From: Branchiostoma floridae
Lineage: Eukaryota; Chordata; Leptocardii; Amphioxiformes; Branchiostomatidae
Reading direction: 5' to 3'
NCBI RefSeq assembly: GCF_000003815.2
Contig: NC_049992.1
Location: 3,333,703 to 3,397,702, forward strand
DNA: 64,000 bases
The notes beneath the pieces are model-generated. The model was not told the DNA's origin and made no database searches. It saw only the letters and a program-made list of their open reading frames with translations. Shown here in pieces: positions 16,613 through 57,720 of this stretch (its first letter is position 1; the number at the start of each line of letters is the position of its first letter). The position numbers and the translations under genes were made by a program.

Positions 16613-19600
16613 TTAGCTGTTGATATCGCGTAGGAGAATTTCTATCTGTCTTATAAACGGGTGATTTTGAGGGTAAACTTGCCTTGCCATAGACAATGCT
16701 TCTAGGTAGGCGTTAGTACCTGTCGTGTGATCACCAAGGCTGAAACAGTATAGCCCCAAGGTGAAGAGTGCCCGGGCAATTTCAGGATGGGGTGCATTCT
16801 GCTCATGGATACGCCTTAACATTTGCAGTGCCCGTTTACCATAGCTTATAGCTTTTCTGTAATCGCCAAGGATGAACCATGCTCCCCCTAGGTTGCCGAG
16901 TAAGCTGGCAACGTCAGTATGTGGAGTGCTGTGACCATAAATGTTCCTGAACATCTGCAGTGCCTGTTCATAGTAGGTGATAGCTTTCCCTTCCTTTCCC
17001 TTCAGATTGATCCAGGCGTTTCCCAATCTGCTGAGTGTCTCGGCAATGTCAGGATGTTCAGTATTGTGCCCGTATACATTTCTGTACATCTGCAGTGCCT
17101 GTTCATGACAGGCAAGTGCTTTTTTGAGATTCCCACGTTTTTCCCAGGCTGTCCCAAGGTCGCTGATGGAGCTAGCGATGTCAGGATGTGCTGAAGTCTG
17201 ACCATGGATACTCCTGCGCATCTCCAATGCCTGTTTAAAAAAGCTGATTGCTTTACTGTAGTCACCAAGGTGTGTCCAGATTGCTCCCATCCTTTTGAGT
17301 GACGTGGCAATGTCAAGATGTGGTTTGGTCTGACCATAGATAATCCTTTGCATTTTCAGTGCCTGCTCATAGTAATCGAGTGCTTTCCTGTGATCACTCA
17401 GACCGCTCCAGGCGGTCCCAAGATTGCTGAGTGCACTAGCAATATCGGGGTGTGCTGTACTATCGCCATAAATTCTCCTGTCCATTTGTAGTGCCTGATC
17501 AAGATAGCTGATAGCTTGTTTGTGATCACATAGAGCGAGGCAGGCATACCCCATGTTGTGAAGTGAAGTAGCAATTTGAGGATATGCTTTAGTTTGATCA
17601 TGACCATAGACACTTTCATACATCTGTAGTGTCTGCTCACTGTAGCTTATTGCTTTTCTGTAATCCCCTAGGCAATACCAGGTCTGCCCTAGGTTAGAGA
17701 ATGACAGGGCAATGTCAGGATGTGCTGAACTCTGATCATGGATCGCCCTGCGCATGTGAAGTGCCTGCTCATGGTAGCTGAGAGCTTTTCTGTAATCACC
17801 TTTATCTTTCCAGACAGACCCAAGTTGGTCCAATGCATTAGCAGTCTGGGGATGTGCTGCAGTTTGCCCATAGTTACTCCTGTTGATTTGTAGCGCCTGT
17901 TCAAGACAGCTGATTGCTTTCTCATAATCACCCAGATTTCCCCAGGCATTTCCCAGGTTGAGGAACGAAGTGGCGTCTTCAGATTTTCCTATTCTGATGC
18001 CATAAATGTCGAAGATTCGTCTGTCCATCTTCTGTGTCTGTACAAAGTAATCAATGGCTGTTTCGTAACGACCACTATCACAATATGCTAACCCCAAGTT
18101 GTTGAGTGTGTTGGCAATCTGTAGAAGCGCTGCATTCTGACCAAAGGTGCTTCTCATAACCTTGAGTGCTTGTTCAAGGTAGCTGATAGCTTTTTTATAC
18201 TCACCAGCTTGTGAATATGTTGTCCCCAAGTTGTTGAGAACGCAGGCAACGTCATGAGAATCAGTAGTTCGACCATGGATACTATTACACATCTGCAGTG
18301 ACTCTTCGTAGAAGCCGATGGCTTTCTGACAGTCACCTACTTTGTGGTAAGCATCTCCAAGATCTCGGAGCAGGTGTATTCTTTCAGGGTCATTACCTTT
18401 AACATTCCTTAAAGCCTCATCATAGCAGTTGATAGCCTGCCTATATTTGCATAGCTCAAAGTACATCTTCCCTTGTACTGTGGGAGAGTTATCATATAGG
18501 TTGGACAAAGAAGGTACAGGTTGCTTCTTGTCCGACAATTTTGACAAAGCCCTTTTAAGAGGGATTGCTGTATAATAGTATCTGAAAAGCTGCTCTAGGC
18601 TTTGTATGTGGAAAACTGGGATCAGTGCACTTGCATTATCTTCATCATTGGTCTGTAGGGATAGTTCCTGTCCACGTACAGATGACGATGTTTCCATTGA
18701 GGCCAAAGCTGACATGTTTTCCTTCTGTCCACCATTTGCAATGTAGGTTCTGAGCCTGAGTTCTGCTGAGATGCTGGTGGTCACTGTCAGGTGGTGTGCA
18801 TTGTCGGGACTGATCACTTGTTGGTTTTCCATTTCTTCTATTGTCTTCCAAACTGTGGTAGGTATAATACACGACGACAACGCCAGACAGTCCACTGCTA
18901 CAGCTGGGAAGCGATAGAGGTCTTTCTTTACATCAATCATGCTTGCTGTAATTGATTGTTTACCTCGATGTCTGTAGATTTCCATATGTTCCTTATCAAG
19001 TATCTTCTGTACCAGTTCTTGAGCCATTGTACCGCCAGCTTTCAGTATTTGTTTTGTGATGACATGTTTGTAGATTTCACAATTTTCCTTAAGCATCTCA
19101 TGTGCCAGTTCTTGCGCCATTTTACCCCCATTAGCTTTCAGTATTTGTTCTGTGATGGCCATGTATATGTCCATCAAACCCTGGTCCCCTGCTACCAGGC
19201 ATGGGTTTCTCAATATTGTGGCAAGGTGATATCCTTCCTTCAGGTGTAATTTGGCATCATCTTGTAGTTTTGAGACCATGTTCCCTGGGGTGCAGATGAG
19301 TTCATTGCGTGGTTTGCTCATACTTCCCTCTCTGCCCAGTGGTGTCTTGCTTGCCTTTGGCATGGAACCATCAAATGCAAACCCACGTGGTGTAACGGAG
19401 TCATAGTACCAGTTGTCAAATGGATTCTTTGAGTAGAAGTCATTGAGAGATTTAATTCCAAGTGCAGGGAGAATGGTTTCTCCCAGGTTGACCACCTTGA
19501 GATGTAGATAGTGAGTGAGATTTCGGAAATATACAAGACATAATTCCCTTTCTTCTTCTACCAAGATGGCAAACTCCAGGTCTGAGTATGGAGTTACCAG

Positions 19601-22123
19601 TCCTGTGGCCTGTGAACCCAAACCTATCAGGGCATACTTACAGGGAGGGGGACCCATTAACCCAATACACTCTTCTACAAGCTGACTGATGAACCCCTTT
19701 CTCTCTTGTGAAATTCTCTCAAATAAGTGCCTGACAACCTGAGCTCGTTTTGCCTCTATCTCTTTGACACGTGAGTCATTCTCATCATGTACATAGGGAT
19801 TCAGTCGCTGGTCAATGGTTTCCATCTCCAGCTTGATCTGGTCCCGCATCTCCTTCAGCTGTTTCTTGTGTTTTTCAGTGTTGTCTTGTTCAACATTATA
19901 GTGAATGCCTAAGATACAATTGAGAAATGAACTCTGTACATGTTTACAGTCTACTACTATGTTACCATTCAGAACGTCATCCTTTGACCTTGCTTTTGCT
20001 GCATTGTAGAGTGCTGCTGCTTTGACAAAGTCTCCCCCGCCTCCTGTCTGCTGACCTCGCTTACTGTAGACATCCCCCAACTTGCACAGGGGCTCCACCT
20101 CTCTTTGGCACTCCTGGGCTGTGGGGTCTGGTGAGAAAGAACTTGATGTTGGGCATGCTTGTATCATATTACTGTTACACATCGGATTGTACGTATCTGT
20201 ACTTAAACCGGTAATCATGAGCTGGAATCAACTGTTTCATCATACTAACACAAATTATAATCGTCTCATATATATAGAAAAAGTGTTATGGCAATGGTTT
20301 TCACCTTTATTGTTCGTGCATGAAGTTATCTAATTATTACCCACTATTCCTTACCTCTCACATGTACCATTTTGAGTGCGGCTGCAAAGTGCTGCTCTGC
20401 TGAGTCCAGGTCTGTCTTGGCAATGGAAGATTCACCTCCCTTGAGGTGGTACTTGTACTGACTAAATCAAAACAAAGGCTCTGATTATGGCGGAGATATC
20501 CATGAGAAAGGATACGTATTTTGAATCTAATGCTTCAATAATAAGGCCAATGAGACAAAGCATTGTGCAAATTCTACATTACTCCGAAAACAAATCTACA
20601 TAATATTCAGAATGCATATCACCTGTTTGATATTCAACAGTCTTAACTTTCGACTTCAATGATGTCAAGGTTGAGAGAGTTTTGCACTATTTCAGCGGTC
20701 AACACACCTTGAAAAATCTGGATGGAGATCTTTCATAGCTCTTATGATCTTCTTCCCCAACTGTCGACCCACGCATGGCTTTCTTACTGACAGTCTTGAT
20801 TTCTTTGGCGATGGCTGCTGTATGATTCAAACAAACTTTTTCAACATGTCTATGCTGTTCATAGCAGTACACGTTCTGCCACGCTCTGTCCATTTAGTTT
20901 ATTACCTCCATGAAATGTCATGGAGGTTATATTTTCAGTAGCAATTGTGTGTCTGTGTGTCTGTCACCAAGATATCTCAGGGTGGATTAGTTTCATACTT
21001 GGTGTGTTGGAAGGGTGTGACGAAAGCTGGAAATGATTAGATTTTGGACCCCTAGCTGCTTCTCTTGGTACTGCAGTGCAACTTCTGGTTTTGCTATCTC
21101 ATGTCCTGAACAAGCTATGGTCCCGATTTTGGGGTGTTAGATAGCTCTTGTGCTCAGGAAGAAGTGACATAAGTTTGGGCCCCCTAGCGTCAGGTTTGTG
21201 ATAGCAGACAAAAACTTGTCCTTGGGGCTTTAGTTAGTTAGTTAAGAATGAATTGATATCTAAACATTTGATTCTCTCCCCGCACTAGGTATGCTGAATA
21301 GATTTGGATTCCATTGCTTAGAAGTAGCCTCTTTTTACTTAGACAGGACACTTTTGATAGCAAACGATATAGTCTTCCAGCGCACAAAAGAACCTTAACA
21401 AAACTAGCATTACTTGATACTGTTGTTGAAAGTACTTACCTTTCTCATTGTTTTCCTTAACTTCTCTGCGTACATGACACGATGGTACAGAGTCTGTTTC
21501 ATTCCAGGCTCCTCATATCTTCTCAGAGCCTTGTTGTACATGGAAACTGCCTTGGAGAATTGGGTTACATCAAAGGTCTTCTTGCCTTTCTCCAAGTACA
21601 AGTCCCCTAACGATTTTAAAGTCTCGAGTTCCAAGAGTACGTCATCGGTTGCGACTGCGGTTACTAATGTTTCTGTGTACGCGTCCACAACAGAGTGCCA
21701 GGGCTTTATACAGAATCTTCTGTCCAACTCGTCACAAATTTTCGCTACTCTTAAGACATTGCCCTCAGCAGTACCCCAGTGGGCTGGTGATTGCTTCTGT
21801 GGAGTGTACCCCTGCAGTAGTTGTCTGGAAAGTTTCTCCATGTAGCCGATGCGATGTTCCAGTGTTTGTCCCATGTCTGAATCTATACAGCGAAGTAGGG
21901 CAGCAGAATAAAGGGCAGCAGCTTTGTCAAACTCTCCTGGATCTTTGCTGAGCTTACCTTTCTGAAGATGCAGGTCTCCAATAAGTTTAAGGACCTCTAC
22001 CTCCACAAAGCTATCCTTATCCACAATGGCCTCTCTCAAAGCCCGCCCATAGCCACCTTCTCTGCTGTGTTGACTCTTGAGACATAGGTCTAAGTTCTGT
22101 AGCTTGTTTACGAGGCTAGTCAT
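16613..22123 (-). CDS. NTPR3: nucleotidyltransferase-TPR protein, 4 coding exons
   Basis: Predicted 1,471 residues from exons 21440-22123, 20708-20817, 20355-20461 and 16613-20127 (phases 0, 2, 1). It starts [12 protein letters not shown]. The linker exon encodes [18 protein letters not shown], close to NTPR4 and unlike NTPR1 and 2. The last exon has the third helical repeat, GLGSQATG and [15 protein letters not shown], then a 32-residue duplication (18969-19160) in the helical block, and about 13 TPRs. The frame of intron 3 is open back to an in-frame ATG at 20218, and the peptide CPTSSSFSP just before the acceptor is identical in NTPR4. A shorter product lacking the N-terminal repeats is therefore conceivable. 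Confidence 0.85.
18969..19160 (-). repeat. In-frame 96-bp tandem duplication in NTPR3
   Basis: Two adjacent 96-bp copies encode the helical pattern AITxQILKxxGxxAQEL...EIYxH, 32 residues each. NTPR1, 2 and 5 have a single copy at this place; NTPR4 has the same duplication at 30061-30252. It lies between the nucleotidyltransferase core and the conserved [14 protein letters not shown] helix. Confidence 0.75.
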
Positions 22124-23329: not shown

Positions 23330-24060
23330 CGCCGTTCCTGGACCGAATGACCTGAAATTTGGCACAGGGGTAGAATGGGCCAATACCTTGATGCTTTTTT
23401 CTCAGTTTTTTCATATCTGCCTTTAAAATGATTTTATTGAGATTTTTTGGTCAATTTTAGACCAAAACTGTATATTTTGGCCCCTGTACCCTGGTATTAC
23501 AACCAAATGAGCTGAAATTTGACAGAGATGTGCCTTAATAATGCTCCCATATAAATTCGATTACACTTTTGGTGTACAGTACAACAAAATGCTTATTTTT
23601 GCGATTTTTTGACCAATTTTCTACCAAAAAAGGACACTTTTGGTCCCTGTACCCTGGTATTACAACCAAATGAGCTGAAATTTGACAGAGATGTGCCTTG
23701 ATAATTCCTCCATATAAATTCAATAACACTTTTGGTGTACAGTACAACAAAATGCTTATTTTTGCGATTTTTTTTACCAATTTTTGACCAAAAAAGGACA
23801 CTTTTGGCTCCTGTACCTTGGTATTGCAACCGAATGAGCTGAAATTTGACACAGATGTGCCTTGATAATCCCTTCATATAAATTCAATAACACTTTTGGT
23901 GTACAGTGCAACAAAATGCTTATTTTTGCGATTTTTGGCCAATTTTTGACCAAAAAAGGACACTTTTGGCTCCTGTACCCTGGTATTACAATTAAATGAC
24001 CTGAAATTTGGTATAGATAGGCATTAGCTACTTGGTAACAAGATTCAAGTAAAATGTTTG
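23330..24060. repeat. 163-bp tandem repeat, about four copies
   Basis: Markers such as CTGGTATTACAACC recur at 23491, 23654, 23817 and 23980, exactly 163 bp apart, with ACACTTTTGGTGTACAGT in most units. The outer copies are diverged. Open frames on the minus strand here are repeat artefacts: the same peptide reappears once per unit. It is probably satellite-like DNA. Confidence 0.8.
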
Positions 24061-27869: not shown

Positions 27870-30800
27870 TCAGCTCAATAGCGCATGTAGGAATATTTTT
27901 ACTCGCTCTATAAATGGGTGATTTTGGTCTTCAGGGTAAACCTGCCTTGCCATGGACAAGGCTTCTTGGAAGGCATTAGTAGCTCTGGTATGATCACTTA
28001 TCATGACCAAGTATGACCCCAAGTTCAAGAGTGCCAGGGCAATATCAGGATGGGGTGTATCGGGACCATAGATATTCCTAAACATCTGCAGTGCCTGTTC
28101 ACCGTAGCTGATAGCATTTTTGTAATCACCAAGGCTGGACCAAACTACCCCCAGGTTCCCGAGCAGTTTAGCAATGTCAGTATGTGGTGTACTATGACCA
28201 TATACATGTATACTCCTGAACATATATAGTGCTTGTTCATAGTAGGTGATGGCTTTCCTTGGCTCATTCAGCGCGCTCCAGGCTCCTCCAATGCTACTTA
28301 GAGAGCTAGCGATGTCAGGATGTGCTGTAGTCTGACCATGGATACTTCTGCGCATCTCCAATGCCTCTTGGAAATAGCTGATTGCTTTCCTGTAATCAGC
28401 AAGGTTTGTCCAGATTGCTCCCACGTTGTTGAGTGACGTGGCAATGTCAAGATGTGCTTCGGTCTGATAAATGTTCCTTTGCATTGTCAGTGCCTGCTCA
28501 TAGTAACTGAGTGCTTTCCTGTGATCACCCAGACCGCTCCAGGCGGTCCCGAGATTGCTGAGTGCACTAGCAATGTCAGGATGTTCTGTACCTTCGCCAT
28601 AGATGCTCCTGTCCATCTTAAGTGACTGCTCAAGATAGCTGATAGCTTTTTTGTAATCACTTAGATAGAGACAGGTGAACCCCAAGTTGTGTAGTGAAGT
28701 AGCAATGTCAGGACATGCTGTTGTTTGATCGTGACCATAGATACTCCTGTACATTTGGAGTGCCTGTTCATTGTAGCTTATTACTTTTCTGGCATCGCCG
28801 AGAAAATACCAGGTAGCCCCTAGGTTCGAGAATGACAAAGCAATGTCAGGATGTGCTGCATTATGACCATAGATCCTCTTGCGCATCTGTAGTGCATGAT
28901 CATGATACTTGACAGCTTTTTTGTAATTACCTTTATCTTTCCAGAGAGACCCAATGCATTCCAGTGCATTAGCAATCTGGGGATGTGCTGCAGTCTGGCC
29001 ATAGTTACTCCAGTACATTTTTAGTGCCTGTTCAATGTAGCTGATTGCTTTCACATATTCACCCAGATTTCTCCAGGCATCTCCCAAGTTGAGGAGTAGA
29101 GTGGCATGTTCAGACTTTCCTGTTCTGACGCCATACGTGTCGAAGATTCGTTTGTCCATCTGCAGTGCCTGTTCAAAATACTCAATTGCTGTTTTGTAAT
29201 CACCAATGTCACCACATGCTAACCCCAGGCTGTTGAGTGTGGTGGCAATGTCTGGATGTGCCGTATTCTGACCATAGGTACTTTTCATTATCTTTAGTGC
29301 TTGTTCAAGGCAACTGATAGCTTTTTTAAAATCACCAGCTTGGGAATATGAGCTCCACAAGTTGTTGAGGACGTAGGAAATCTCTCGACAGTTAGAAGAC
29401 TGCCTCTTGTACATCTGCAGTGTTTCTTCGTAGTAGACGATGGCATTCTGACAGTCACCTACTTTGTTGTAAGCATCTCCAAGATTAATGACCAGATGTA
29501 TTCTCTCAGTGTCATTTTGTTCAGCTTTCTCCATGGCCTCCTCATAGCAGTGGATGGCCAGCCTATATTGGCATAGCTCAAAGTACATCATTCCTTGTAC
29601 CGTGGGAGAGTTATCATAGAAATTAGCGGAAGAAGTTAGAAATTGCTTCTTTTCTGGCAATTGTGACAAATCTCTTTTAAGAGGAATTGCTGTATAGTAG
29701 TATCTAAAAAGTTGTTTTTGATTTTGTTGGTGAAAAACTTTGAGCCCACTTCCATTTTCGTCATTGGTCCGTAGGGACGATGTTTCCATTGAGGCCAGAG
29801 CTGAGAGGTTTTCCCTCTGTCCACCATTTGCAATGTAGGTTCTAAGCCTGAGTTCTGCTGAGATGCTGGTAAGCACTGTCAGGTGGTGTGCATTGTCGGG
29901 ACTTATCACTTGTTGGTTTTCCATTTCTTCTATTGTCTTCCAAACTGTTGTAGGTATAATACACGACGACAACGCCAGACAGTCCACTGCTACAGCTGGG
30001 AAGCGATAGAGGTCTTTCTTTACATCAATCATGCTTGCTGTAATTGATTGTTTACCTCCATGTCTGTAGATTTCCATATTTCCCTTGATTATCTTCTGTG
30101 CCAGTTCTTGCGCCACTTTACCGCCATTGCCTTTCAGTATTTGTTTTGTGATGGCATGTCTGTAGATTTCAATATTTTCCTTAAGCATCTCCTGTGCCAG
30201 TTCTTGTGCCATTTTACCCCCACTAGCTTTCAGTACTTGTTCTGTGATGGTCATGTATATGTCCATCAAACCCTGGTCCCCTGCTATCAGGCATGGATTT
30301 CTCAAGATTGAGGCAAGGTGATATCCTTCCTTCAGGTATGATGTGGCATCAACTTGGAGTTTTGAGACCATGTTACTTGGGGTGCATATGAGTTCACCTA
30401 TTCCCTGCCTGCCCAATGGAGTCTTGCTTGCCTTTCGCATGGAGCCGTCAAATGCAAACCCACGAGGTGTAACAGAGTCATAGTACCAGTCGTCTTGTGA
30501 ATTTTCTGAGTAGAAGTCATTGAGAGATTTTATTCCCAGTACTGGGAGAATAGTTTCACCAAAGTTGACTACCTTGAGATGTAGATAGTGGGTAAGATTA
30601 CGGAAATACGCAAGGTATCGTTCACTTTCTTTTTCTACCAAGATGGCAAACTCCAGGTCTGAGTATGGAGTTACCAGTCCAGTGGCCTGTGAACCCAAAC
30701 CTATCAGGGCATACTTACAGGGAGGGGGACCCATTAACCCAATGCACTCTTCTACAAGCAGGGCGATAAACTCCTTCCTTTTTTGTGCAATGTCCTCAAA

Positions 30801-33077
30801 CAACTGCCTGACAGTCTGAGCTCGATTTTCTTCTATCTCTTTGACACGTGGGTCATCCTCATCATGTACATAAGGATCCTGCTGCTGGTCAATGGTTTCC
30901 ATCTTCAACTTGATCTGGTCCCGCATCTCCTTCAGCTGTTTCTTGTGTTTTTCTGTGTTGTCTGGTTCCACATTATTGTGAATGCCTAAGATACACTTGA
31001 GAAATGACCTCTCTACACGTTTACAGTCTACTACTATGTTACCATTGAGGACTTGATCCTTTGACCTGGCTATTGCTGCATTGTAGAGTGCTGCTGCTTT
31101 GACAAAGTCTCCCCCGCCTCCTGTCTGCTGACCTCGCTTACTGCAGACATCCCCCAACTTGCACAGGGGTTCCACCTCTCTCTGGTACTGCTGGGCTGTG
31201 GGATCTGGGGAGAAAGAACTTGATGTTGGGCATACACGTATCAAATTACTGTTTGATTTATATCCATTTGACTTCTCTATACTTGTAGTGGCAATCATAA
31301 GCTGGAATATTAATTGTTTCATTATGTTTACACAAATTGCAATCATCCCATAGGAAAAGTCTCACATGCACCTTACCTCTCACATGCACCATCTTGAGTG
31401 CAGCTGCAAAGTGCTGCTCTGCTGAGTTCAGGTCTGCCCTGGCAAGGGAGGAGTCACCTTTCTTGAGGTGATCTTGGTACTGACTAAATGAAAAAGACAA
31501 GCTCTGATTATGGTGGAGATATCCATGAGCAAGTATAGCAAACATGTTTTGAAACTGACGCTTCAAAGATACGGCCACGTTTTAGACTTTTGTTTTATTT
31601 TAACGGTCGACTCACCTTGGTATGTCTGGATGGAGATGGCAGTCTTCCATAGCTCTTATGATCTTCTTCCCCAACTGTCGACCCGCACATGGCTTCCTTG
31701 CTGACAGTCTTGATTTATTTGGCGAAGGCTGCTGTAGGGTTAAAACAAACAAGTTCTACAATGCTCTGCAAATTTTTGTATTTATTTTGTCCTTAGCCTA
31801 ACCCCGTAAACCTGTACATACAAACATCATGACGATTCGTCAACTCCTCCTATGGTTATTCTCTTTCAAAGTCTTAACATTGGCCCTTGCAGTTCAAAAC
31901 GGCCATAGAAGGGCCTAAACCTACACATATTACTGTGCAGCCCAACAGCTTTTACAACTTAAACAATAATGACCAGTTTGACCACTGATATGACCAGAAC
32001 ACAGGAAATTAAAAGACACATGCATCTAAAACATAACCATCTTGGAGAAGGTAACAAATCTGAGTGGCCATGGACGATATCCTTCGACAAAAAAGTCTTG
32101 CCTTTGGGGCTTTGTTAGTTGAATGAATTGATAGCATCTTTTGAGATATCTAAACACTTGTATTCTGTCTCCGCATTAGGTATGCTTAATAGAGTTGGAT
32201 TCCTAAATTGCTTAGAAGTAGCCTCCTTTTCACTGAGACCGGACAGTTTGTGCGATCAGGTATTGAGGGTTTGGAACCACATGCATCGGCCACTTTTGCT
32301 GGCAAAAAATATAGTCTTACAGCGCACAAAAGACCCATAACAAAACTAACATTACTTGATACTGTTGTTGAAACTACTTACCTTTCTCATTGTTTTCCTT
32401 AACTTCTCCGCGAACACGACACGATGGTACAGAGTCTGCTTCATTCCAGGCTCCTTACATGTATATCTTCTCAGGGCCTTGCTGTACATGGAAACCGCCT
32501 TGAGGAACTGGGATACATCAGACGTTTTCTTACCTTTCTCCAAGTACAAGTCCCCTAACGATTTTAGAGTCTCGAGTTCCAAGAGCACGTCAGCGGTTGT
32601 GAGTGCGGTCACTAATGTTTCTGAGTACGCGTCCTCGACAGAGTGCCAGGGCTTTAGACCGACTCTTCTGTCCAAGTTGTCACAAATTCTCGCCACTCTT
32701 AAGACATTGCCGTCAGTAGTACTAATACCCCAGCAGTAGGATGGCTGTTCCTGTGGAGTGTACCCCTGCAGCAGTTGTTTTGAGAGTTTCTCCATGTAGC
32801 CAATACGACGTTCCAGTGTTTGTCCCATGTCTGGATCTGTGCAGCGCAGTAGGGCAGTAGCATACAGGCCGGCAGCCTTGTCAAACTCTGCTGAATCTTT
32901 GCTTAGCTTGCCTTTCTGGAGACACAGGTCTCCTAGACTTTTCATCACTTCTGCTTCGATAAAGTCATCTTTCTTAACAATGGCATCCTTCAGAGCCCGT
33001 CCATAGTTCATTGCTTGGCCATGTCGACTCTTGAGATTGGACTCCAAGTCCTGTAACTTGTTTGCCAGGCTAGTCAT
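27870..33077 (-). CDS. NTPR4: nucleotidyltransferase-TPR protein, 4 coding exons
   Basis: Predicted 1,417 residues from exons 32382-33077, 31616-31731, 31377-31483 and 27870-31204 (phases 0, 2, 1). It starts [12 protein letters not shown]. The linker exon reads QPSPNKSRLSARKPCAGR, nearly that of NTPR3. The nucleotidyltransferase core is intact ([20 protein letters not shown]) and the helical block carries the same 96-bp duplication as NTPR3. Most of the TPR region instead matches NTPR2 (for example [17 protein letters not shown]), and one repeat is missing where an NTPR3-like HPDIASSLS runs straight into an NTPR2-like [15 protein letters not shown]. About 12 TPRs remain. The gene therefore looks like a recombinant of its neighbours. 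Confidence 0.85.
30061..30252 (-). repeat. In-frame 96-bp tandem duplication in NTPR4
   Basis: Two head-to-tail 96-bp copies, each beginning on the plus strand TGTCTGTAGATTTC, encode 32-residue helical units. It is homologous to 18969-19160 in NTPR3. Confidence 0.8.
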
Positions 33078-33359
33078 CTTGGCCCTAAAACATTTCCTTC
33101 GTCTTGTCCGATTGTCTGCAACCTTTATGAGTTGTCTTTGTTCCTTTAAGTCCTGAGTTGCTGCCTTGAATACTTCGATTTGGTCAGTCTTGTTGACATG
33201 TCAACATGTTCAAAGACTGTGTTACAAACAGGAGGCAGGTATCTGCTAGCTTTTCTGGCAGGATGGATACACTTGTCTCGATCTTAAATGGACGTCTGGA
33301 ATGCCACAACTTACAGCCCTTCAAGACATTTGCCTGTTCGTCTGTAAGTCAGAGCTCTC

Positions 33360-35289: not shown

Positions 35290-38200
35290 TTAGACATTTT
35301 TTGTAGATTCATTATGGGATGGGCGAGTAATGGACAGGTCCACTTCCATCAGATGCATTGACCATGGTTCTTTGTTCTGCAAATCGATTTTCCTTGCCAG
35401 GGCGAAGGCTTGGTTATGTTTAATGAATGCTGCGTCGTAATCCTTGAGAAGAAAGCAAACAAGCCCCTGGAAACGGAGTGTGTGGACAATTTCAGTCTGA
35501 CCATGGATCATCGTGTACACCTGTAGGGCTTCTTCAAGGTAGCTTTTTACTTTTCTGAAGTCACCTAGAAAGAACCAGGCATACCCAAGGTAGAAGAGCG
35601 ACTTAGCAATTGCCTCAGAGGCTACATTTGGTCCGTGGATACTCCTGTGCATCTGCAATGCCTCTTCGCAGTACCTGATAGCTTTCCTGTTATCCCCTTT
35701 GAAACCGCTCCAGGCCTCCCCGAGGCTGACGAGTGCGCCAGCAATGTCAGCATGTGTTGTATTCTTTCCATGAATAACTCTTAACATCTGCAGCGCGTTT
35801 TCCAAGTAGTCGATGGCTCTTTCATTGTCACAAAGTTCATTGCAGGCTCTACCAAGATTTTCATATAAGTGGGCAATGTGGGGATGTACAGCATCCTGGC
35901 CATAGATGTCTCTTAACATCTGAATTGCTTTGTCAAAATAGCTAATTGCTTTCTCGTGATCACCTTGGCTGTACCATACTTCACCAAGACTATTAAGTAC
36001 ACCGGCAATATCGGGATGTGCTCTAGTCTGACTATAGACACTCTTGAACATCTGCAGCGCCTGTTCATAGTAGCTGGTTGCTTTTCCATGATCACCCAGC
36101 TTGTGCCAGGCTGCACCCAGGTTATGGAGTAACACGGCGATGTCGGGATGTGCAGTGTTATGACCATAGATACAAGTAAGCATTTGCAGTGCCTGCTCAC
36201 TGTAGCTGATTGCTTTCCTGTGGTCACCCAGGCTACCCAATGCTAATCCCATACTGTTAAGTGAGTTGGCAGTGTCAGGGTGTGCTGTACTCTGTCCATA
36301 GATACTTCTTTTCATCTGCAGGCTCTCGCGGCAATACCTGATTGCTTTTTCATAATCACCCAACTTATGCCAGGCTCCCCCGAGGTTGTTAAGTGAAGTG
36401 GCAATGTCAGGGTTGGGTGTACTCTGGCCATAGATACTTTTGTTCATCTGCAATTCTTGTTCAAAATGTTTTATAGCCTTCCTTACATCCTCTAACCCAA
36501 TCCAGGCAGACCCAAGATATTTGAGCGAAGTAGCAATGTCAGGATCAGCTGTACCGTGGCCAAAGATGCTCTCCCTTGACTGTAGTGCCTGTTCGCTGTA
36601 ATCAATTGCTTTTTTGTATTCCCCACGACAGTGCCAAACAGCTGCCAGATTGTTCAATAGGCTTACCTTCTCGGCTTTGGAATCTCCGGTTTGCTTCAGA
36701 GCCTCTTCTATGTATCTGATGGCCAGGTCATACCTACATAGATCAAAATACATCTTTCCTCGCACCATCGGAGAATCATCATAGAAATCAGGGAATATGT
36801 GCATAATCATAACTTGGTCCTGAACAGGCCATTCGGACAATATACGTTGAAGAGGAATTACCGTGCAATAGTATCTTAAAAGCTGTTTTTCATTTGGTAG
36901 ATGAAAGACTGGCTTCATGGAGTTTCCTGGTACTTTATCAATACTCTGTTGGCACGTTTCCTGTCCATGACACGTTGTTTCTGTCGAAGCCAAGGCTGAC
37001 AGGCTTTCTCTCTGTCCACCATTTGCAATGTAAGTTCTGAGCCTGAGTTCTGCTGAGATGCTGGTAAGCACTGTCAGGTGGTGTGCATTGTCGGAACTGA
37101 TCACTTGTTTGTTTTCCATTTCTTCTATCGTCTTCCAAACGGTGGTAGGTATTATGCCTGAAGACAGAGCCATGCAGTCCACTGCTACAACTGGGAATCG
37201 ATAGATTTCTTTCTTTACATCAATCAGGTTTGCTAGGTTTGTCCTGCCGTCACTGTAGCTTTCGAAATGTCCAAACAATGCTTGCTGTACAAGTAGTCGA
37301 GACACTTCACCCCAGTCAGCTTGCAGTGTATTTACTGTGATGCCCTTGTACGTTTGGATCAAATACTGGTCCCCTGCTATCAGACAGGGATTTCTCAAGA
37401 TATTGGCAAGGTGATACCCTTTCTTTAGGTACAATGCGACGTCATTCTTTATTTTCGAAACCATATTTTCTGGGGTGCATATGAGCTCACTAGGTGATTG
37501 GTTCATAGTTCCCTGTCTGCCCAGTGGAGTCTTGCATGCCTTTGGCATGGAGCCATCAAATGCAAACCCACGTGGTGTAACGGAGTCATAGTACCAGTTG
37601 TGAAGTGGATTTTTGGAGTAGAAGTTATTGAGAGATTTTATTCCCAGTGTTGGGAGAATGGTTTCTCCCAGATTGACCACCTTGAGGTGTAGATAGTGGG
37701 TGAGTTTGCGGAAATACAGAAAACTAGGCTCACTTTCTTCCTCTACCAAGATGGCAAACTCCAGGTCTGAGTATGGAGTTACCAGTCCTGTGGCCTGTGA
37801 ACCCAAACCTATCAGGGCATACTTACAGGGAGAAGGACCCATTAACCCAATACACTCTTCTACAAGCAGGCTGATGAACTCTTTTCTCTCTTGGGCAATT
37901 TTCTCAAACAAGTGCCTGACAGCCTGGGCTCGTTTTGCTTGTATCTCATTGACACATGGGTCATCCTCATCATGTACATAGGGATCCAGCTGCTGGTCAA
38001 TGGTGTCCATCTCCAGCTTGATCTGGTCCCGCATCTCTTTCAGTTGTTTCTTTTGTTTTGCTGTGTCATCTCGATTCAGTCGATGGCATATACCCAAGAT
38101 ATATTTGAGAAAAGACGTTTCTACACCTTTTATGGCTTTCTCTATGTTACCGTTGGTGACTTCAGCCTTTGACCTGGCTCTTGCTGCATTGTAGAGTGCT

Positions 38201-39955
38201 GCTGCTTTGACAAAGTCTCCCCCGTCTCCTGTCCGCTGACCTCGCTTACTGTAGACATCCCCCAACTTGCACAGGGGCTCCACCTCTCTCTGGTACTGCT
38301 GGGCTGTGGGGTCTGGGAGGAAAGAGGGAAGAAAGAAACAAAATTTACATTTGGACAAAACGTTTATCGCATGATGGCATCTGTTTGTAAGGAGCCTGTC
38401 CTTTGTGGTAAAAAAAAATCGCACACAGACTCGTTTATAATTGGAGCTACATAGTCATATAACTGAAGTCAACAACTCGCATCAAGTATCTATTGATATC
38501 TTACTGAGTCAGCTTGAAATTAGGAAGACTGTTCAACCTTTGTTTCTATATCTACTCAAGCATGGGGCGATTTGTCACATACCTCCTATATGCACTGCCT
38601 GGAGTGCGGCTGCAAAGTGCTGCTCTGCTGAGTCCAGGTCTGCCCTGGCAAGGAATGATTCACCTTCCCCAAAGTGGTGCTTGTACCACCTTGAAAGGAA
38701 AATCAGACCGTTGCGGTCTACCATCATTGTATAAAACACATCTGGAGCGTAGATTAAACTTTGTATATTTGTAAAACTAGATTACAAGATTAGATCATCC
38801 ACGCAATGTGTTTTGAAAACCCATACACGTCCAACCGATACCCAATGTAATCTTTTCAGAAAGTTTTTTTGGACTCACCTGTATCTTTGTCTGTCTTCTT
38901 CAGTCAGTCCTCCGTCTGGTCTTTTGCTGAGATTCTTTGAGCAAGAGAAAAGAGATTAATGCTGTCTTGATTTTACTATATCGACACACGCTTACGCAAT
39001 CATACGTACCGAATAATGTCTTCACTGTGTACGGTTCAAAAACCCTTTGGATTGTCATTACAGTCATTTCGGTGCAAAACGATTTTTGTATTTATTTTGC
39101 ATAGTACAGTAGTTTGGCGACACGGATTTCTATATCGCTTTAGGCTGATATTACACAGCTTTAGCTACAGTGCACATTTAGCTAATTTGCATACCCATAC
39201 ATACATCTATTTCCTTCATTTGCAAAAATAACTACCATTGATAAATATATACTCACTCTTATCACGACTTCCCTGATTTTCTCAGTGTACAAGATGCGAC
39301 GGTGCAGAGTCTGTTTCAGCCCATGCTCCTCACATATGCATTTAGCCAGGGACTTGTTGTACATGGCAGAAGCCTTGGAGAGCTGGACTAAATCAGAACG
39401 GCTCTTGCCGTTCTCGAGGTACAAGTCTCCAAGTGATTTTAGGACCTCAAGCTCTAGCATCGCATCGCGATCTGTGATTGCAGTCACTAACGTTTCCATG
39501 TAAATCTCCTCAACAGAGTGCCAAGGTTTCCCGATCCTTCCATCGACTCTATGCCTATGGCAAATTTGTGCCACCCTCAAAATATTGTTGTCAGCAGTAA
39601 TTTTGTTGCTTGATGACCACCACTGAATGCGTGGAGAGTACCCCTGCAGCAGTTGTCTGGAGAGTTTCTCCAAGTAGCCGATACGATGTTCCAGAGTTTG
39701 TCCCATGTCTGAATCTGTGCAGCGCAGTAGGGCAGCAGCATAAAGGGCAGCAGCCTTGTCAAACTCTGCTGAATCTTTGCTGCGCTTGCCTTTCTGAAGA
39801 AACAGGTCTCCAAGACTTTTCAAGACTTCCACCTCCATAAAATCATCTTTCTGAATAATGGCATCTCTCAGAGCCCGACCATACTGAATTGTTTGGCTGT
39901 GTGGACTCTTCAGGCACAACTCCAAGTCCTGTAACTTGTTTGCCAGGCCGGCCAT
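35290..39955 (-). CDS. NTPR5: nucleotidyltransferase-TPR protein, linker exon not found
   Basis: Exons seen are 39257-39955 (233 codons, [12 protein letters not shown]), 38879-38926 (48 nt, [15 protein letters not shown]), 38583-38689 (one TPR) and 35290-38312. The first exon ends in phase 0 while the 48-nt exon needs phase 2, so a linker exon of length 3n+2 must lie between 38930 and 39250, as in the other four genes. I could not place it: the best candidate region (about 39005-39045, donor TTCG/GTACGT) has TGA in the required frame. The large exon is intact, with [23 protein letters not shown] and about 10 TPRs, the fewest of the family. Either the exon is very diverged or full-length splicing is lost. 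Confidence 0.75.
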
Positions 39956-42407: not shown

Positions 42408-46530
<4,123 letters not shown>

Positions 46531-49154: not shown

Positions 49155-52100
49155 ATGATACTGGAACAACGGGTGGCGTGCACCTGCTTCGCCCTGGGGA
49201 CGGGGGTCGTGCTGGTACCGATGCTCACACACTTCCACCTTCGGGAGCTGTCGGACCTGAGCCCGTACGGTGCAGCACTGTACACCGCTGTGGTTAACGG
49301 GGTTTTGCTGTTCATGTGCAGGGGGTATCTATATCAGGTAGGAACTCTTTGTGTTCGTGTTCTACCCTTCCACGCTGTAACATGGCTTATGGGTCATGGT
49401 ATAGTTTTATATGCCCTGTCAGTTAAATAAAACTTGAGAGAAACACAGAAGTTTGTGTAAGTTTACTGTAACGTTAACGTTACATTGATCCGAATGAATT
49501 TTGTAGTGTAGAGTACTTCACCCAAAGTGTTGATTTTCTATTTCAGGAAAACGTCATCTTTGGAAGTCTGGAACATTCTATGTTTTGATTTACACAAAGT
49601 CTAGTGCAAAGAGATGTTGTTGACGTCATATGAATCATAGCCTGACTTCCCTGGCGACCATATTGGCAGGGTAATTGGATTACAGCAGCAGCATGTTGGC
49701 ATGTTTTACAGATGTACAATCAAATCCTAGATGGTGCAATTGACATCATATCGAAAACCTTAATTCAATATTAAATGTGAATTGGTTCGATATTGAGTGG
49801 ACTCCGGGAGTGGAGTAGAGGTCTCCGGCCATGTAGAAATGCTGGTTTCCACATGGAGCCACTCTTCATCATCATCAGTTCAGATCACTGCAGTCATTTC
49901 AGGTCGTTGTGGGTTGTTCTGTTCAGAGCTCTTAAAAAAAAGTAATATTCTCCAAGCAGAGGTTTCGGTTGGAGGGCTGGTGTGTTTTAATGTCTGCTTA
50001 CCTCCAGAGACCACTGAATTTATTCCTGTATTCTTTTACGAGGGTAAGCTCCCATCAGTGAATAGCACTGCTTTTCAGGGAGGCCCTGGATACACAAACA
50101 AAATAGCACATACACACAGTACATAGTACATACTACTACTAGTAGCCTTCTGACCAAAACCCCTGCTTGGAAAATGAATACATACATGTATCACTGGATG
50201 TCGTTTTTCTTATTTCAGGTGGGGATCCGTGCGTGTGGTCTGGGCCTGGCGTTCGGGCTGGGTCTGTGGCTGAGTGTGGCCGCTGCCCAGTGGTACATGT
50301 TCGGTTGGTACATGTGTGCCCTCAGCTTCTTCCACTTCTCGGAGTACATCGTCACGGCAACGTATAACCCCGAGTCTCTGTCCCTGGACTCGTTCCTGCT
50401 GAACCACAGTATGGAGTATGGACTGGCGGCCATCGCAAGCTGGGTGGAGTTTGGTTTGGAGGCGTGGATATTCCCAGGTAAGTCATCTGTGTTTACGTAT
50501 GGATACAACTCAAGGAACTGGCTGTAGTACAGAAACGGTCAGAGTTAGGTAAGTCATGTTTGTTTAAGCAAGGCCACAGCCACTCAAGCAACTGGCTATG
50601 ATATGGAAACAGTTAGAGTTATGATATAAAACCTGCTCTCCAACAAGATCTCTTCAGTGTCATTAAAATGGATGTTATCTGAAATGTCTCACTGTTTCCA
50701 AAATCATATCCAGTTTCTTGAGTACTTTTTTTTTGCTATGGTATTTGTCAAAATGGTTAGATGTTTCAGACAACATCCGCTGTCTTTCATCTTTGACTGT
50801 ATATAACTGCATGCTGAAAAGTGAAAGACAACTGGATGCTACCTGAAAAATCTGACCATTTCTGCTGGAGTAACTACATTTATTATCTTGCATATCAAAT
50901 TTAATATTACCTGCATGTCTAACCTTCATTGTCATATTTTAGGTTTGTTTTCTCCTGGACTGCAGTCTTGATCTGGTTGAAGCTGTTGCCATGGCAACGG
51001 AAGCTGATGCACAGCTGTCAGGGTTCCCAGAATCCCACAGTCACTGCCAGGCTTGTTGCCTGGCCTCAAACATGCATCTTCGTTAGCTGTCAGTAATTAA
51101 GAAGGCCAAGCCAATTCAATTTGTTGGTTCCCATGTTTTTAAAAATGTATTTGTTATAGAAAAATGCTAACACTTTACATCAGACATTGGAATTAACACC
51201 ATAGGGGCTTGTCCCTCTGAATTTTCAGACGAACTCCGTCGACCTTGTTCACAGATTGAATGACCCTTTTATCTCCAGCAGTGATGTCAGAAATACACCA
51301 CTTTTGCAGAAGTATCAGGAGTTTCGAAAGTATCAGAAAGTCTATGTCTCTGTACATTTCAATGCCTACCAGGCATCTCCCTCAGACCTCTGACTGTAGT
51401 GCTGGACTTCTAAGTAGTTTCAAACAATGTTTTGAATTTTCCTCTCCAGACCTGAAGCAAGTGCCATTCCTGCACTACGCTGGCTTGTTCCTGGTGGTGG
51501 GGGGTGAGTTTCTGCGGAAAGCTGCCATGTTGACGGCCAAGTCCAACTTTAACCACATCGTGCAGAGTAAAAAGGCAGACAGCCACATGCTGGTGACCCA
51601 CGGAGTCTATCAGCTGTGCAGACATCCGGCGTACGTGGGGTGGTTCTACTGGAGTTTAGGCACACAGGTACGTTGGGTGGTTCTACTGGAGTTTAGGCAC
51701 GCAGGTACGTGGGGCGGTTCTACTGGAGTTTAGGCACACAGGTACGTGGGGGGTTCTACCGGAGTTTAGGCACACAGGTACGTGGGGTGGTTCTACTGGA
51801 GTTTAGGCACACACTCACACAGGTACGTGGGGTGGTTCTACCGGAGTTTAGGCACACAGGTACGTGGGGTGGTTCTACTGGAGTTTAGGCACACAGGTAC
51901 GTGGGGTGGTTCTACTGGAGTTTAGGCACACAGGTACGTGGGGTGGTTCTACTGGAGTTTAGGTACACAGGTACGTGGGGTGGTTCTACTGGAGTTTAGG
52001 CACACAGGTACGTGGGGTGGTTCTACTGGAGTTTAGGCACACAGGTACGTGGGGTGGTTCTACTGGAGTTTAGGCACACAGGTACGTGGGGTGGTTCTAC

Positions 52101-53086
52101 TAGAGTTTAGGCACTCAGGTACGTGGGGTGGTTCTACTGGAGTTTAGGCACACAGGTACGTGGGGTGGTTCTACTGGAGTTTAGGCTCACAGGTACGTGG
52201 GGTGGTTCTACTGGAGTTTAGGCACACAGGTACGTGGGGTGGTTCTACTGGAGTTTAGGCTCACAGGTACGTGGGGTGGTTCTAATGGAGTTTAGGCACA
52301 CAGGTACGTGGGGTGGTTCTACTGGAGTTTAGGCACACAGGTACGTGGGGTGGTTCTACCGGAGTTTAGGCACACAGGTACGTGGGGTGGTTCTACTGGA
52401 GTTTAGGTACACAGGTATGTGGGGTGGTTCTACTGGAGTTTAGGTACACAGGTACGTGGGGTGGTTCTACTGGAGTTTAGGCACACAGGTACGTGGGGTG
52501 GTTCTACTGGAGTTTAGGCACACAGGTACGTGGGGTGGTTCTACTGGAGTGTAGGTACACAGGTACGTGGGGTGGTTCTACTGGAGTTTAGGCACACAGG
52601 TACGTGGGGTGGTTCTACTGGAGTTTAGGCACACAGGTAGGGACTGATTCCCACAGGAGTAACTTGTCTGTCTGTCTGTGTGTTTGTTTGTAAATTGCAT
52701 AACTGGTAAACTGAAGGCGTAACACACCTGGTTTGTACTGAAGGGTACAAAAAGCTGCATATAACCCTATGTGTATGTTGTTGGCTACGCTTAGGTATTT
52801 CTATCTATATTTTTTTCAGGTCCTTCTATACAACCTATTTAAACTTGTGTGCACTGCTAGCAATTGTGCCAAACTCTAACTGAATGTTTTGTTGTGCCTC
52901 CAGGTCCTACTATGTAACCCTGTGTGTGTTGTTGGTTACACCTGGGCGTCCTGGCATTTCTTCCGGGAGCGGGTAGAAGACGAGGAGGTGACGTTGCTGA
53001 ACTTCTTCGGCGAGCAGTACCTGGACTACATGCAGCGGGTTGGCACGGGGCTACCCTTCATACAGGGCTTCAAGGCAAACTTCTAA
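49155..53086 (+). CDS. ICMT: ICMT, isoprenylcysteine carboxyl methyltransferase, 4 coding exons
   Basis: ER membrane enzyme that methylates the carboxyl group of the C-terminal prenylcysteine of CAAX proteins, using S-adenosylmethionine. Exons are 49155-49337, 50219-50477, 51450-51667 and 52904-53086, giving 280 residues, close to the human length. The protein is hydrophobic with several membrane spans (for example ACGLGLAFGLGLWLSVAAA). The catalytic C-terminal half carries HGVYQLCRHPAYVGWFYWS and ends with EQYLDY followed by GLPFIQGFKANF, both hallmarks of the family. The 3' UTR is about 1.1 kb, with AATAAA at 54157-54162. The exon 3 donor is followed at once by a 37-bp minisatellite that repeats the end of the exon and the donor. 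Confidence 0.95.
49950..50175. mobile_element. Inverted-repeat element, TCCAAGCAG family, in ICMT intron 1
   Basis: TCCAAGCAGAGGTTTCGGTT at the left pairs with AACCAAGGG-like right arm sequence read as TGACCAAAACCCCTGCTTGGA. It is non-coding. The right end lies about 45 bp before the exon 2 acceptor. Confidence 0.5.
50750..50865. repeat. Imperfect inverted repeat in ICMT intron 2
   Basis: AAATGGTTAGATGTTTCAG with CTGTCTTTCA is mirrored by GAAAGACAACTGGATG and TCTGACCATTT. It may be a decayed MITE. Confidence 0.35.
51630..52645 (+). repeat. 37-bp minisatellite replicating the ICMT exon 3 splice donor
   Basis: The unit is GTACGTGGGGTGGTTCTACT followed by GGAGTTTAGGCACACAG. The first copy is the real end of exon 3 (codons for YVGWFYWSLGTQ) with its donor CAG/GTACGT; I count 26 further copies to about 52640, nearly all keeping CACACAG/GTACGTGG. 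One unit has a 7-bp insertion and a few have point changes. The period of 37 is not a multiple of three, and reading through meets TAG in the second downstream unit, so only the first donor gives a normal protein. Confidence 0.9.
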
Positions 53087-55382: not shown

Positions 55383-57720
55383 ATGTGGACCAAACAGCTG
55401 TGCAGGAATGTTGTACTTTGTCACCTGAAGCGATGGACACGAACACACAGACATGTCAGGCCCTGGTCACCACTGTCTACTGTCAGGGCTGCAAGCTCGG
55501 CGCATGGCGCTGGGATTCTGGGCTCGCTACAAGTCACTCACGGGGACCACGTACATATCAGGGATGTAGGACATGTGGAACAGGTGTGTTTGTAACCTGA
55601 TTATATCTTGCTTATAGCAGCCCAACCAATCTGTAGTGGTCACATTGTGCACAGTGGGATAGTACCAATTTGAAATAGGAAGACTTGATTTTTTACAATG
55701 ATTTTTAGATGATGCTTGTAGAGATCTTCTCACTCACACTCACTCCGATGAGCTCGCTCAGAATGTCCACACATCTAGTTTCCTCCACCCCTCTTTGTCA
55801 TTTATCGCTGCGGGAAGTTGCTGCAGGTCCAAACCATATCCTGGAAAAATGAATTGTTCAATTTCCTATATTTCCTTTTTGTGTCAACAAAGACAAGACA
55901 GTTCAACATTAGTCTCTACCAGACTGACCACGCCCAAGAGTGACAAGTCATCAAAACTTGCCAGTTGAGTTTTGCTACCAGAGGAGTTGGCCGGAGGAGG
56001 AACATTAACCCCAGTGTTGACTGCCCCCTGGCCAAGTTCCCGATTTTTTTCGGAATTTTACTATCCCTGTACCTCTGTATATAGAGACATATCTAGAGAC
56101 TTGAGCAACTTGAAAAATGTCTACTTATGAAGGATTAAGTCTTCCTAACATCTGCTTGGAGATTAGAGACCAATCCAAATGTTTATTTATCTCAACAGGT
56201 GCTACGGAACATGGTGGCCGGGGGTAGGGAGAAACTGCAGGTGATCAGCGACTTTGACCACACGCTGAGCCGCTCCACGTACGATGGCGTCCGCTGCCCG
56301 ATGACCCATGACCTGGTGAAGGATTCCCGCTTCATCTCCGAGTCCGACCAGAAGAAAATGTGCAAGATCTGGCAGTACTACTATCCCAAGGTACAGGCTT
56401 TTAGTTAGGATTTTATTATAGGGAGTCCAAATTTATTGGTGAGTTGCGGTAAATGAATATTGTAGGGGGGTCCGGGGGCATCCACCTTCCATGGTGCAGA
56501 GTTTTTGATTTTTTTAAATCAAAATAGTGCATTCGAAGGTATCCTAAAAGGCAAAAATGCTGTTACAGAGGTCAAAGTAGAAGACTGTGACCACAGATGA
56601 CCTGGTAGCATCCCTGGTCAATCAGAATTTCATGCTTGCCAGAGGATTTTCTCCCCAGTTCCAGGGCGTCCAGAGCGTCAAATTTCTTGTTATTCTAAGA
56701 AGAGCATATCATCTGGCCGCGTTGATGCATGCCTGGCTAAAAGCCTGCTCCTATCTTGTGTTTTGTAGTCATGTCATTGAAGTAGTTGTCTCTTTTTCAC
56801 TGTCATTCGACACAAAAGTTTCTCACCTCAAATTTTCAGTCTCACCTGGAATTTTCAGTCGCATAACCTGAAAAACGGATTTTATCATTTTACCAACACA
56901 GATGTTTGTTGTCATCTACAATGGATGTGTTTGAGTAATAATAAACAAAGCAGTAGTTTGTTCGGCTAGACAACATGAAAGTAGACATTATGTATTTGTT
57001 TGTAAATGTCATGTTAAATGTCTAGTTTAGTTTGCAATTCAGTCTCTGAACTGCCATGACCCTTTAAAGCCAATAGACTATCTTATCTTATTTTCATCTC
57101 AGGAGATCTCTACCACCCTGCCTCTGCAAGAGAAAATCCCGCTCATGGTCGAGTTCTGGAACAAAATCCACGACATCTTCATCGCGTCCGATCTCACCCG
57201 ACAAGCGGTCCGCACGATCGTGCAGGAAAGCGACACCAGATTTCGCGACGCCTGCGACGTTTTCGTGAACGTGTTGCGCAAAAACGACATCCCTTTGCTC
57301 GTGTTTTCCGCTGGTGTTGGCGACGTCATACACGAGATGTTCGAAAAACACGGCCTGACGATCCCCAACTGTCACGTCGTCTCCAACTTCCTGACCTTCA
57401 ATGATGCAGGAAAGGTCGTCGGTTTCCGTGACCCCCTGATCCACATTTGCAACAAGAACAGGAGCGTTCTTCCAGACCACACCTACTCCTTAAAGCAACA
57501 GGAACGGACTAACGTGATCCTTCTGGGAGATTCCTTGAACGATCTACAAATGGCCGACGGAGTTCCCAACATGGACCGGATCCTCACCATCGGATTCCTG
57601 AGTAGACATGTAGAGAGACTGCAAGATTTCACTGAAGCTTTTGACATAGTTTTGGTGCAAGACGAAACCATGCATGTTGCAAATGCAATCCTGGGGAAGA
57701 TTGTGGGCTCAGATGGGTAG
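55383..57720 (+). CDS. NT5C3: NT5C3, cytosolic 5'-nucleotidase III (HAD family), 3 coding exons
   Basis: Dephosphorylates nucleoside 5'-monophosphates, mainly pyrimidine or 7-methyl-GMP in known members. Exons are 55383-55583 (within an exon starting at the acceptor at 55368), 56199-56390 and 57103-57720, all phase 0, for 336 residues. HAD motifs: ISDFDHTLS (motif I, nucleophile and acid/base Asp), VFSAGVGDV (motif II), and LLGDSLNDLQMADG (motif IV). The family signature before motif I, HVHIRDVGHVEQVLRNM, spans the first splice junction and confirms the frame. The first 50 or so residues (MWTKQLCRNVVLCHLKRW onwards) are rich in Arg and His with no acidic residue and could be a mitochondrial presequence or an unrelated extension. 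A noncoding first exon may end near 54595 (ACAGA/GTAAGT). Confidence 0.92.

What the first reader, a model, noticed from the sequence alone, without database searches (positions are those of the whole stretch)
51630..52645. ICMT exon 3 donor amplified into 27 tandem splice donors
A 37-bp minisatellite comprises the last 33 or so coding bases of exon 3 plus the donor CAG/GTACGT. The intron therefore starts with 26 near-identical decoy exon ends and donors. Because 37 is not a multiple of three and a TAG appears in the second downstream unit, use of almost any other copy would truncate the catalytic domain. How the correct donor is chosen, or whether decoy use tunes ICMT level through decay of mRNA, is an open question.
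Basis: partly seen in the sequence, partly recalled or inferred. Interest (0 to 1): 0.85.

Follow-up and report, generated by a model that had tools for sequence, protein, structure and literature searches.

The report
Repeated splice donor in lancelet ICMT
The end of one exon of what is very probably a lancelet gene for a membrane methyltransferase has been copied into a row of 27 units, each ending in a splice site; this is a large new example of an already described lancelet oddity ("mirage" repeats), and most likely only the first copy is used.

Summary
Window 51631-52636 holds 27 tandem units, 25 of them exactly 37 bp. Unit 1 is the last 37 coding bases of ICMT exon 3. Each unit ends CAG and is followed by GTACGT (25), GTATGT (1) or GTAGGG (the last).

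Two refinements. The GTACGT of the copies is coding sequence (TAC GTG, Tyr-Val); the GTAGGG at the far end is probably the ancestral donor, displaced 969 nt. Any of the 26 other donors truncates ICMT; 23 of 26 put the stop over 50 nt before the last junction.

The kind is known. Amphioxus minisatellites duplicating exon-intron boundaries are published as "mirages", reportedly without disturbing splicing. Human F7 intron 7 has 37-bp repeats where only the most upstream donor is used. In this genome I found a globin array like a published mirage and, among 16 other donor arrays fetched, four at exon ends with clear homologues.

Best reading: a neutral mirage, with the first donor used by position. 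Decoy-tuned ICMT dosage is untested and unlikely. No RNA or second individual was available.

The parts
49155..49337 (+). ICMT exon 1 (coding, from my choice of ATG; donor CAG|GTAGGA)
   Evidence: open frame and splice consensus; homology begins only at residue 41
50219..50477 (+). ICMT exon 2 (donor CCAG|GTAAGT, phase 1)
   Evidence: homology of the joined product
50476..50619 (+). degenerate single tandem duplication that starts at the exon 2 donor: 50476-50545 against 50547-50619, both with AG|GTAAGTCAT
   Evidence: score 74, 0 of 500 shuffles; but 44 of 1968 random adjacent blocks of the window score 70 or more
51450..51667 (+). ICMT exon 3 (218 nt), encodes ...RHPAYVGWFYWSLGTQ
51631..51667 (+). 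repeat unit 1: the last 37 coding bases of exon 3
51668..52636 (+). 26 intronic units (2-27), 969 nt, each ending CAG and followed by GT; first stop in frame with exon 3 is TAG at 51731
51668..51673 (+). donor 1, GTACGT: inferred functional donor of intron 3
   Evidence: only donor of 27 that gives full-length ICMT
52637..52642 (+). donor 27, GTAGGG: inferred ancestral donor, displaced by array growth
   Evidence: the unit's GTACGT is replaced here and the array ends at GTA
52817..52835 (+). weak duplicate of the exon 4 acceptor edge (CAG|GTCCTTCTATACAACC); a second fragment lies at 52759-52795
   Evidence: 4 of 500 shuffles (52817 copy) and 0 of 500 (52759 copy) reach the scores; 11% of random points of the window do as well
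52904..53086 (+). ICMT exon 4 with stop codon TAA 53084-53086 (one search printed the end one base short)

Best explanation
A boundary-spanning minisatellite ('mirage') in intron 3 of ICMT. Origin (inferred): a 37-bp tandem duplication between an exonic GTA (51631) and the GTA of the old donor CAG|GTAGGG set the exon end CAG in front of coding GTACGT and so created a second donor upstream of the old one; slippage or unequal exchange then raised the number to 27 and keeps the units alike. Mode of action (inferred): the exon body is paired with the first donor after it, giving a 218-nt exon that leaves the protein unchanged; the 26 other donors are removed inside the intron as bystanders. Shown here: the array, its units, its frame consequences, its single place in the assembly, and further arrays at exon ends in the same genome. 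Not shown: any splicing outcome.
For: Array and donors. Register: the left edge is exactly the exonic GTA, the right edge exactly the GTA of GTAGGG. Only donor 1 preserves ICMT, whose product aligns with solved ICMT across the junction. Position rather than strength: 25 donors including donor 1 share one 9-mer; by computed U1 pairing donor 1 is the weakest of 27 (-7.9; donors 2-20 and 22-26 at -9.0, donor 21 at -9.4, donor 27 at -11.2 kcal/mol), and its mean unpaired probability (0.11) is third lowest of 27. In the DNA-PKcs array the Pfam match of the untrimmed frame ends two residues past the first donor, and that donor is weaker than 13 of the 14 downstream CAG|GTR sites (-11.1 against -13.5). 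Precedents: amphioxus mirages and F7. Class test in the same genome: triple CAGGTAAGT 51 matches against 0 for the backwards pattern; triple CAGGTACGT 133 against 7.
Against: No RNA evidence. Use of the first donor is inferred from which product is viable, so surviving arrays are biased towards it. The two strength measures disagree on donor 27: by recalled human base frequencies CAGGTAGGG (8.96) scores below CAGGTACGT (9.52), and CAGGTATGT (10.04) above. The first donor is not weaker everywhere: in L077, L079 and L081 it equals the next ones, and in L087 it is as strong as the best. Classical assays with duplicated donors sometimes favour the intron-proximal site (recalled). Of the 51 matches, 24 are one dispersed 51-bp family; many of the 133 come from a few long arrays, ICMT included. 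Ten of the 16 other donor arrays fetched have no homology support (eight scanned, two not).
Confidence: 0.8

Rival explanations
1. Regulated decoy: a fraction of transcripts uses downstream donors, is truncated and destroyed by NMD, and array length tunes ICMT level.
For: 26 of 26 alternative donors truncate the protein; 23 of 26 leave the stop over 50 nt before the last junction. All 26 decoys pair with U1 better than donor 1 by computed energy.
Against: Published mirages are reported not to disturb splicing. Substitutions are not significantly kept out of the donor 9-mer (1 of 16, binomial P 0.07). Donors 2-4 give transcripts that would escape NMD.
Confidence: 0.1
2. Assembly artefact: the array or its copy number is made by the assembler.
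For: Repeat number differed between database versions for the lancelet PGBD5 mirage (PMC3902484), and the BflGb6 mirage appeared aberrantly assembled in the genome draft (PMC3087553).
Against: 12 distinct unit types, 16 scattered substitutions in the 37-mers, clean edges and one locus; an assembler loop would not invent these. For PGBD5, re-examined reads confirmed the repeats. Copy number here stays unverified.
Confidence: 0.05
3. Step towards intron gain: a unit's CACACAG is or will be used as an acceptor, so an internal unit becomes an exon (the Ebner et al. model).
For: Every unit carries AG|GT; the published model exists.
Against: The units lack a clear pyrimidine tract before CACACAG (read from the sequence); stops occur in all three frames of the intron (15, 13 and 15).
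Confidence: 0.04

Closest known systems
Amphioxus 'mirage' minisatellites (Adh3, troponin C, globins BflGb6/BflGb9, PGBD5)
   Same: [quoted passage not shown] many units keep AG/GT; units homogenised; reported not to disturb splicing (PMC3087553, abstract and passages of section 16; PMC3902484, sections 16 and 17 read).
   Different: Here 27 units of 37 bp at a donor, against 2-7 units of 60-160 bp in the globin and PGBD5 cases. Adh3 units are given as 10-72 bp; its copy number, and details of troponin C, were not seen.
Human F7 intron 7 37-bp VNTR
   Same: [quoted passage not shown] only the most upstream site is used normally (PMC6627357, section 15 read; primary paper Borensztajn 2006 not held).
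   Different: Unrelated gene; fewer repeats (recalled); splicing was measured there, not here. The shared 37 is probably coincidence.
Human internal tandem repeats at exon-intron boundaries of segmental duplications
   Same: Minisatellites (about 30-bp units, 4 repeats on average) at exon edges, variable in number (PMC2812944, passages).
   Different: Those at boundaries are reported to generate alternative splicing and novel introns.

Membership tests
Amphioxus mirage | Tandem repeat units spanning an exon-intron boundary | tested here: met
Amphioxus mirage | Units carry AG/GT splice signals (many, not all, in published cases) | tested here: met
   27 of 27 units end CAG and are followed by GT
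Amphioxus mirage | Host is a cephalochordate | tested here: inconclusive
   No tool names the organism; a 513,431,437-bp assembly and a 158-bp x 4.2 array at a globin exon start (L016, 1 of 9 globin loci) match the published BflGb6 mirage of 150-160 bp
Amphioxus mirage | Concerted evolution with the cluster's boundary units set apart | tested here: inconclusive
   13 of 27 identical; unit 2 has two private changes, but units 1, 26 and 27 equal the consensus; adjacent units no more alike than random (P 0.49)
Amphioxus mirage | Length polymorphism between haplotypes or somatic cells | not testable with these tools
   one assembly; one copy of the locus found
Amphioxus mirage | Normal mRNA is made | not testable with these tools
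   no RNA data
F7 intron 7 VNTR | Located in the coagulation factor VII gene | tested here: not met
   host gene is ICMT; may work like it, not a member
F7 intron 7 VNTR | Only the most upstream donor used | not testable with these tools
   inferred only, from product viability

The most novel reading that the evidence does not exclude
Lancelet genomes hold many natural donor arrays at exon ends, in which the spliceosome ignores up to dozens of equal or stronger donors by position alone. In ICMT, leakage into the array depends on copy number, so a fast-changing minisatellite sets enzyme dosage between individuals.
Probability: 0.1. Interest if true: 0.75.

Novelty: new member of a known kind. 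Interest (0 to 1): 0.42.

Why it matters
It is a natural experiment on donor choice: 25 donors with the same 9-mer in a row, of which only the first preserves the protein. With the other arrays found here it would let exon definition or oriented scanning be tested across genes in one animal, with copy number as a natural variable.

Tried and rejected
Strongest donor chosen: does not give a viable product by U1 pairing, where donor 27 is strongest; the recalled frequency score ranks donor 21 highest and donor 27 lowest, which does not favour donor 1 alone either. Accessibility: donor 1 has mean unpaired probability 0.11, the others 0.01-0.71, the exon 1 and exon 2 donors 0.46 and 0.49, so no explanation. 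Selection keeping decoy donors intact: 1 of 16 substitutions in the 9-mer against 3.9 expected, P 0.07; variable positions 1 of 9 against 9 of 28, P 0.39; not shown. Neighbouring units more alike than distant ones: no, P 0.49. Mirages at the other ICMT boundaries: no signal at the exon 1 donor, exon 2 acceptor and exon 3 acceptor; weak at the exon 2 donor and exon 4 acceptor, where about 11% of 1500 random points of the window score as high. Other tandem donors in the window: besides the ICMT array, one pair at exon 2 and one dissimilar pair on the - strand at 34334/34266. Pfam hit of L080 (androgen receptor, E 0.068) taken as chance. L081 looked like an exon of a known kind by eye but found no support. 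L085 and L086 found no support among solved structures. Base rate at 30 P450 loci: 1 array (L039, 58 bp x 2) overlaps an edge of the protein match, and 2 more (L044, L046) lie within 60 bp of one; match edges are not always exon edges.

Not completed: the pattern search with CAGGTGAGT and the family searches PF00069 and PF00106 did not complete. A separate reversed-pattern control did not complete; the tool's own backwards control served instead. The list is cut at ICMT, so loci beyond it were not seen. Literature: isoprenylcysteine plus Branchiostoma gave 3 papers, seen as a listing only; no paper on an ICMT array was noticed. PMC2206037 (amphioxus huntingtin; passages) mentions tandem repeats in the scaffolds but no mirage. 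PMC2423196 (passages) lists factor competition, scanning and U1 affinity as models of splice site choice.

Full report
What is there. The stretch 51631-52636 is a minisatellite of 27 units, 25 of exactly 37 bp, one of 36 and one of 45. Unit 1 is the last 37 coding bases of exon 3 of an ICMT gene whose four exons I place at 49155-49337, 50219-50477, 51450-51667 and 52904-53086, 280 residues in all (the start codon is my choice). Pfam gives ICMT with E 2.5e-29, and the solved ICMT 5v7p aligns over residues 41-277 with E 6.7e-79, without a gap at the exon 3/4 junction. The exonic unit encodes YVGWFYWSLGTQ; the solved relative reads YVGWFYWSIGTQ.

Where the donors come from. Read in register, the array begins at the coding GTA of GTACGTGG and ends at the GTA of CAG|GTAGGGACTG. 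The simplest history, inferred, is one duplication between two GTA triplets, one in the exon and one being the start of the intron. It put the exon's CAG in front of coding GTACGT and made a new donor upstream of the old one.

Turnover. Thirteen of 27 units equal the consensus, 12 unit types occur, and the 25 full-length units differ on average at 3.3% of sites. Neighbouring units are no more alike than random ones (P 0.49). The array matched one locus in the 513-Mb assembly, as did exon 3, so no second haplotype could be compared.

Consequences of donor choice. Only donor 1 gives full-length ICMT. Donor 2 shifts the frame and stops early in exon 4; donors 3-27 stop at the TAG in unit 3. For donors 5-27, that is 23 of 26, the stop lies 89-903 nt before the last junction and would be NMD-eligible under the usual 50-nt rule (recalled); donors 2, 3 and 4 would not. 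Donor 1 is not favoured by strength: 25 donors share its 9-mer; its computed pairing with U1 is -7.9 kcal/mol, against -9.0 for donors 2-20 and 22-26, -9.4 for donor 21 and -11.2 for donor 27. By recalled human base frequencies donor 27 is instead slightly weaker than the rest (8.96 against 9.52). Donor 1 is not more accessible in local folds: third lowest of 27. If normal ICMT is made, position decides. Exon length grows from 218 nt at donor 1 to 1187 nt at donor 27, so exon definition would favour donor 1 (inference).

The same thing elsewhere in this genome. [quoted passage not shown]). There the protein match begins in the last, exon-side copy: at an acceptor too, the exon-side copy is the one attached to the exon body. 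A genome-wide pattern of three CAGGTAAGT with spacers of 12-42 gave 51 matches, the backwards control 0; 24 of the 51 belong to one dispersed 51-bp-period family at 17 places and 27 to six other loci (sorted by eye). Three CAGGTACGT gave 133 matches against 7 for the control; the printed list, which stops at ICMT, shows 11 loci including ICMT, and many matches come from a few long arrays. I fetched all six and the ten others.

Of these 16, four begin at the end of an exon with a clear homologue. DNA-PKcs, L078: Pfam 5.4e-18 on the untrimmed frame, ending two residues past the first donor; PDB 2.9e-8 on a stretch that I trimmed at that donor. AFF4-type, L087: Pfam 8.8e-12, residues 3-47 of 48. 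Dynein heavy chain, L079: PDB 1.4e-7 for a trimmed 35-residue query (best single stretch 2.8e-5), with no Pfam hit. S-adenosylmethionine decarboxylase, L077: PDB 2.7e-6 for a trimmed query, ending five residues before the donor; Pfam 7.6e-4, below its cut-off. Two more have Pfam hits below the cut-off (L086 HlyIII 4.7e-4, L085 TTL 7.3e-4) and no support among solved structures. The other ten have none: L080, L081, L083, L084, L088, L089, L090 and L092 were scanned; L082 and L091 were not; L083 lies wholly inside its array.

Donor strength in these arrays is mixed: the first donor is weaker than most later ones in L078 (-11.1 against -13.5 for 13 of 14) and L080 (-7.9 against mostly -12.1), equal to the next in L077, L079 and L081, and as strong as the best in L087. 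In 30 P450 loci one array overlapped an edge of the protein match. Donor arrays at exon ends therefore recur in this genome; I give no total.

Comparison with what is known. Mirages were named for the Adh3 gene of amphioxus and extended to globins (PMC3087553, abstract and passages of section 16 seen); PMC3902484 adds PGBD5 and states that the Adh and troponin C mirages do not generate aberrant mRNAs (sections 16 and 17 read). The primary Adh paper was not held. Human F7 intron 7 has 37-bp repeats where oriented scanning leads to use of only the most upstream donor (PMC6627357, section 15 read); the primary paper was not held. The ICMT array meets the anatomical definition of a mirage; polymorphism and normal splicing could not be tested. 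If the inference is right it works like F7, without being related to it.

Verdict. The finding is correct as observation and well argued, but its kind is known and the likely answer to its open question has precedent. What it adds is size (27 units), a readable trace of how the array was born, and a genome in which more cases can be found. The most novel reading, dosage set by array length, is not excluded and not supported.

Noticed in passing
window 522-39994, - strand: Five large related open frames (522-4607, 8673-12047, 16616-20227, 27873-31361, 35293-38454), with five smaller similar frames of 243-282 residues between them: a tandem family of TPR genes. Only the first large one was scanned (TPR_NPHP3 4.6e-53); one small one (32355-33200) had no Pfam hit.
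   Followed up: partly
window 18968-19157 and 30059-30256: Similar 96-bp double repeats lying inside two of these TPR open frames.
   Followed up: no
window 23425-24010: Array of 164-bp units, 3.6 copies, 89% matches.
   Followed up: no
window 46401-46527: Array of 52-bp units, 2.4 copies, upstream of ICMT.
   Followed up: no
window 42922-43347 (-) and 57031-57717 (+): A Ras-family exon (Pfam 1.8e-11) and a UMPH-1 pyrimidine 5'-nucleotidase exon (2e-68) lie either side of ICMT.
   Followed up: no
G000, e.g. C10:9105055-9105672, C9:22694953-22695114: Dispersed family of 51-bp tandem units with CAGGTAAGT at 17 places; probably carried by a mobile element (inferred), not exon-derived.
   Followed up: no
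G000:C7:20917474-20921098 (-): Units of about 39 bp with CAGGTACGT spread over some 3.6 kb.
   Followed up: partly
L079 621-989: A second donor-bearing array (31-bp units, 12 copies, CAG|GTGAGCAT) some 300 bp upstream of the dynein donor array.
   Followed up: no
L080 1123-1760: Open frame ending in a 22-bp donor array whose first donor (GTACGT, -7.9) is weaker than most of the following (-12.1).
   Followed up: partly
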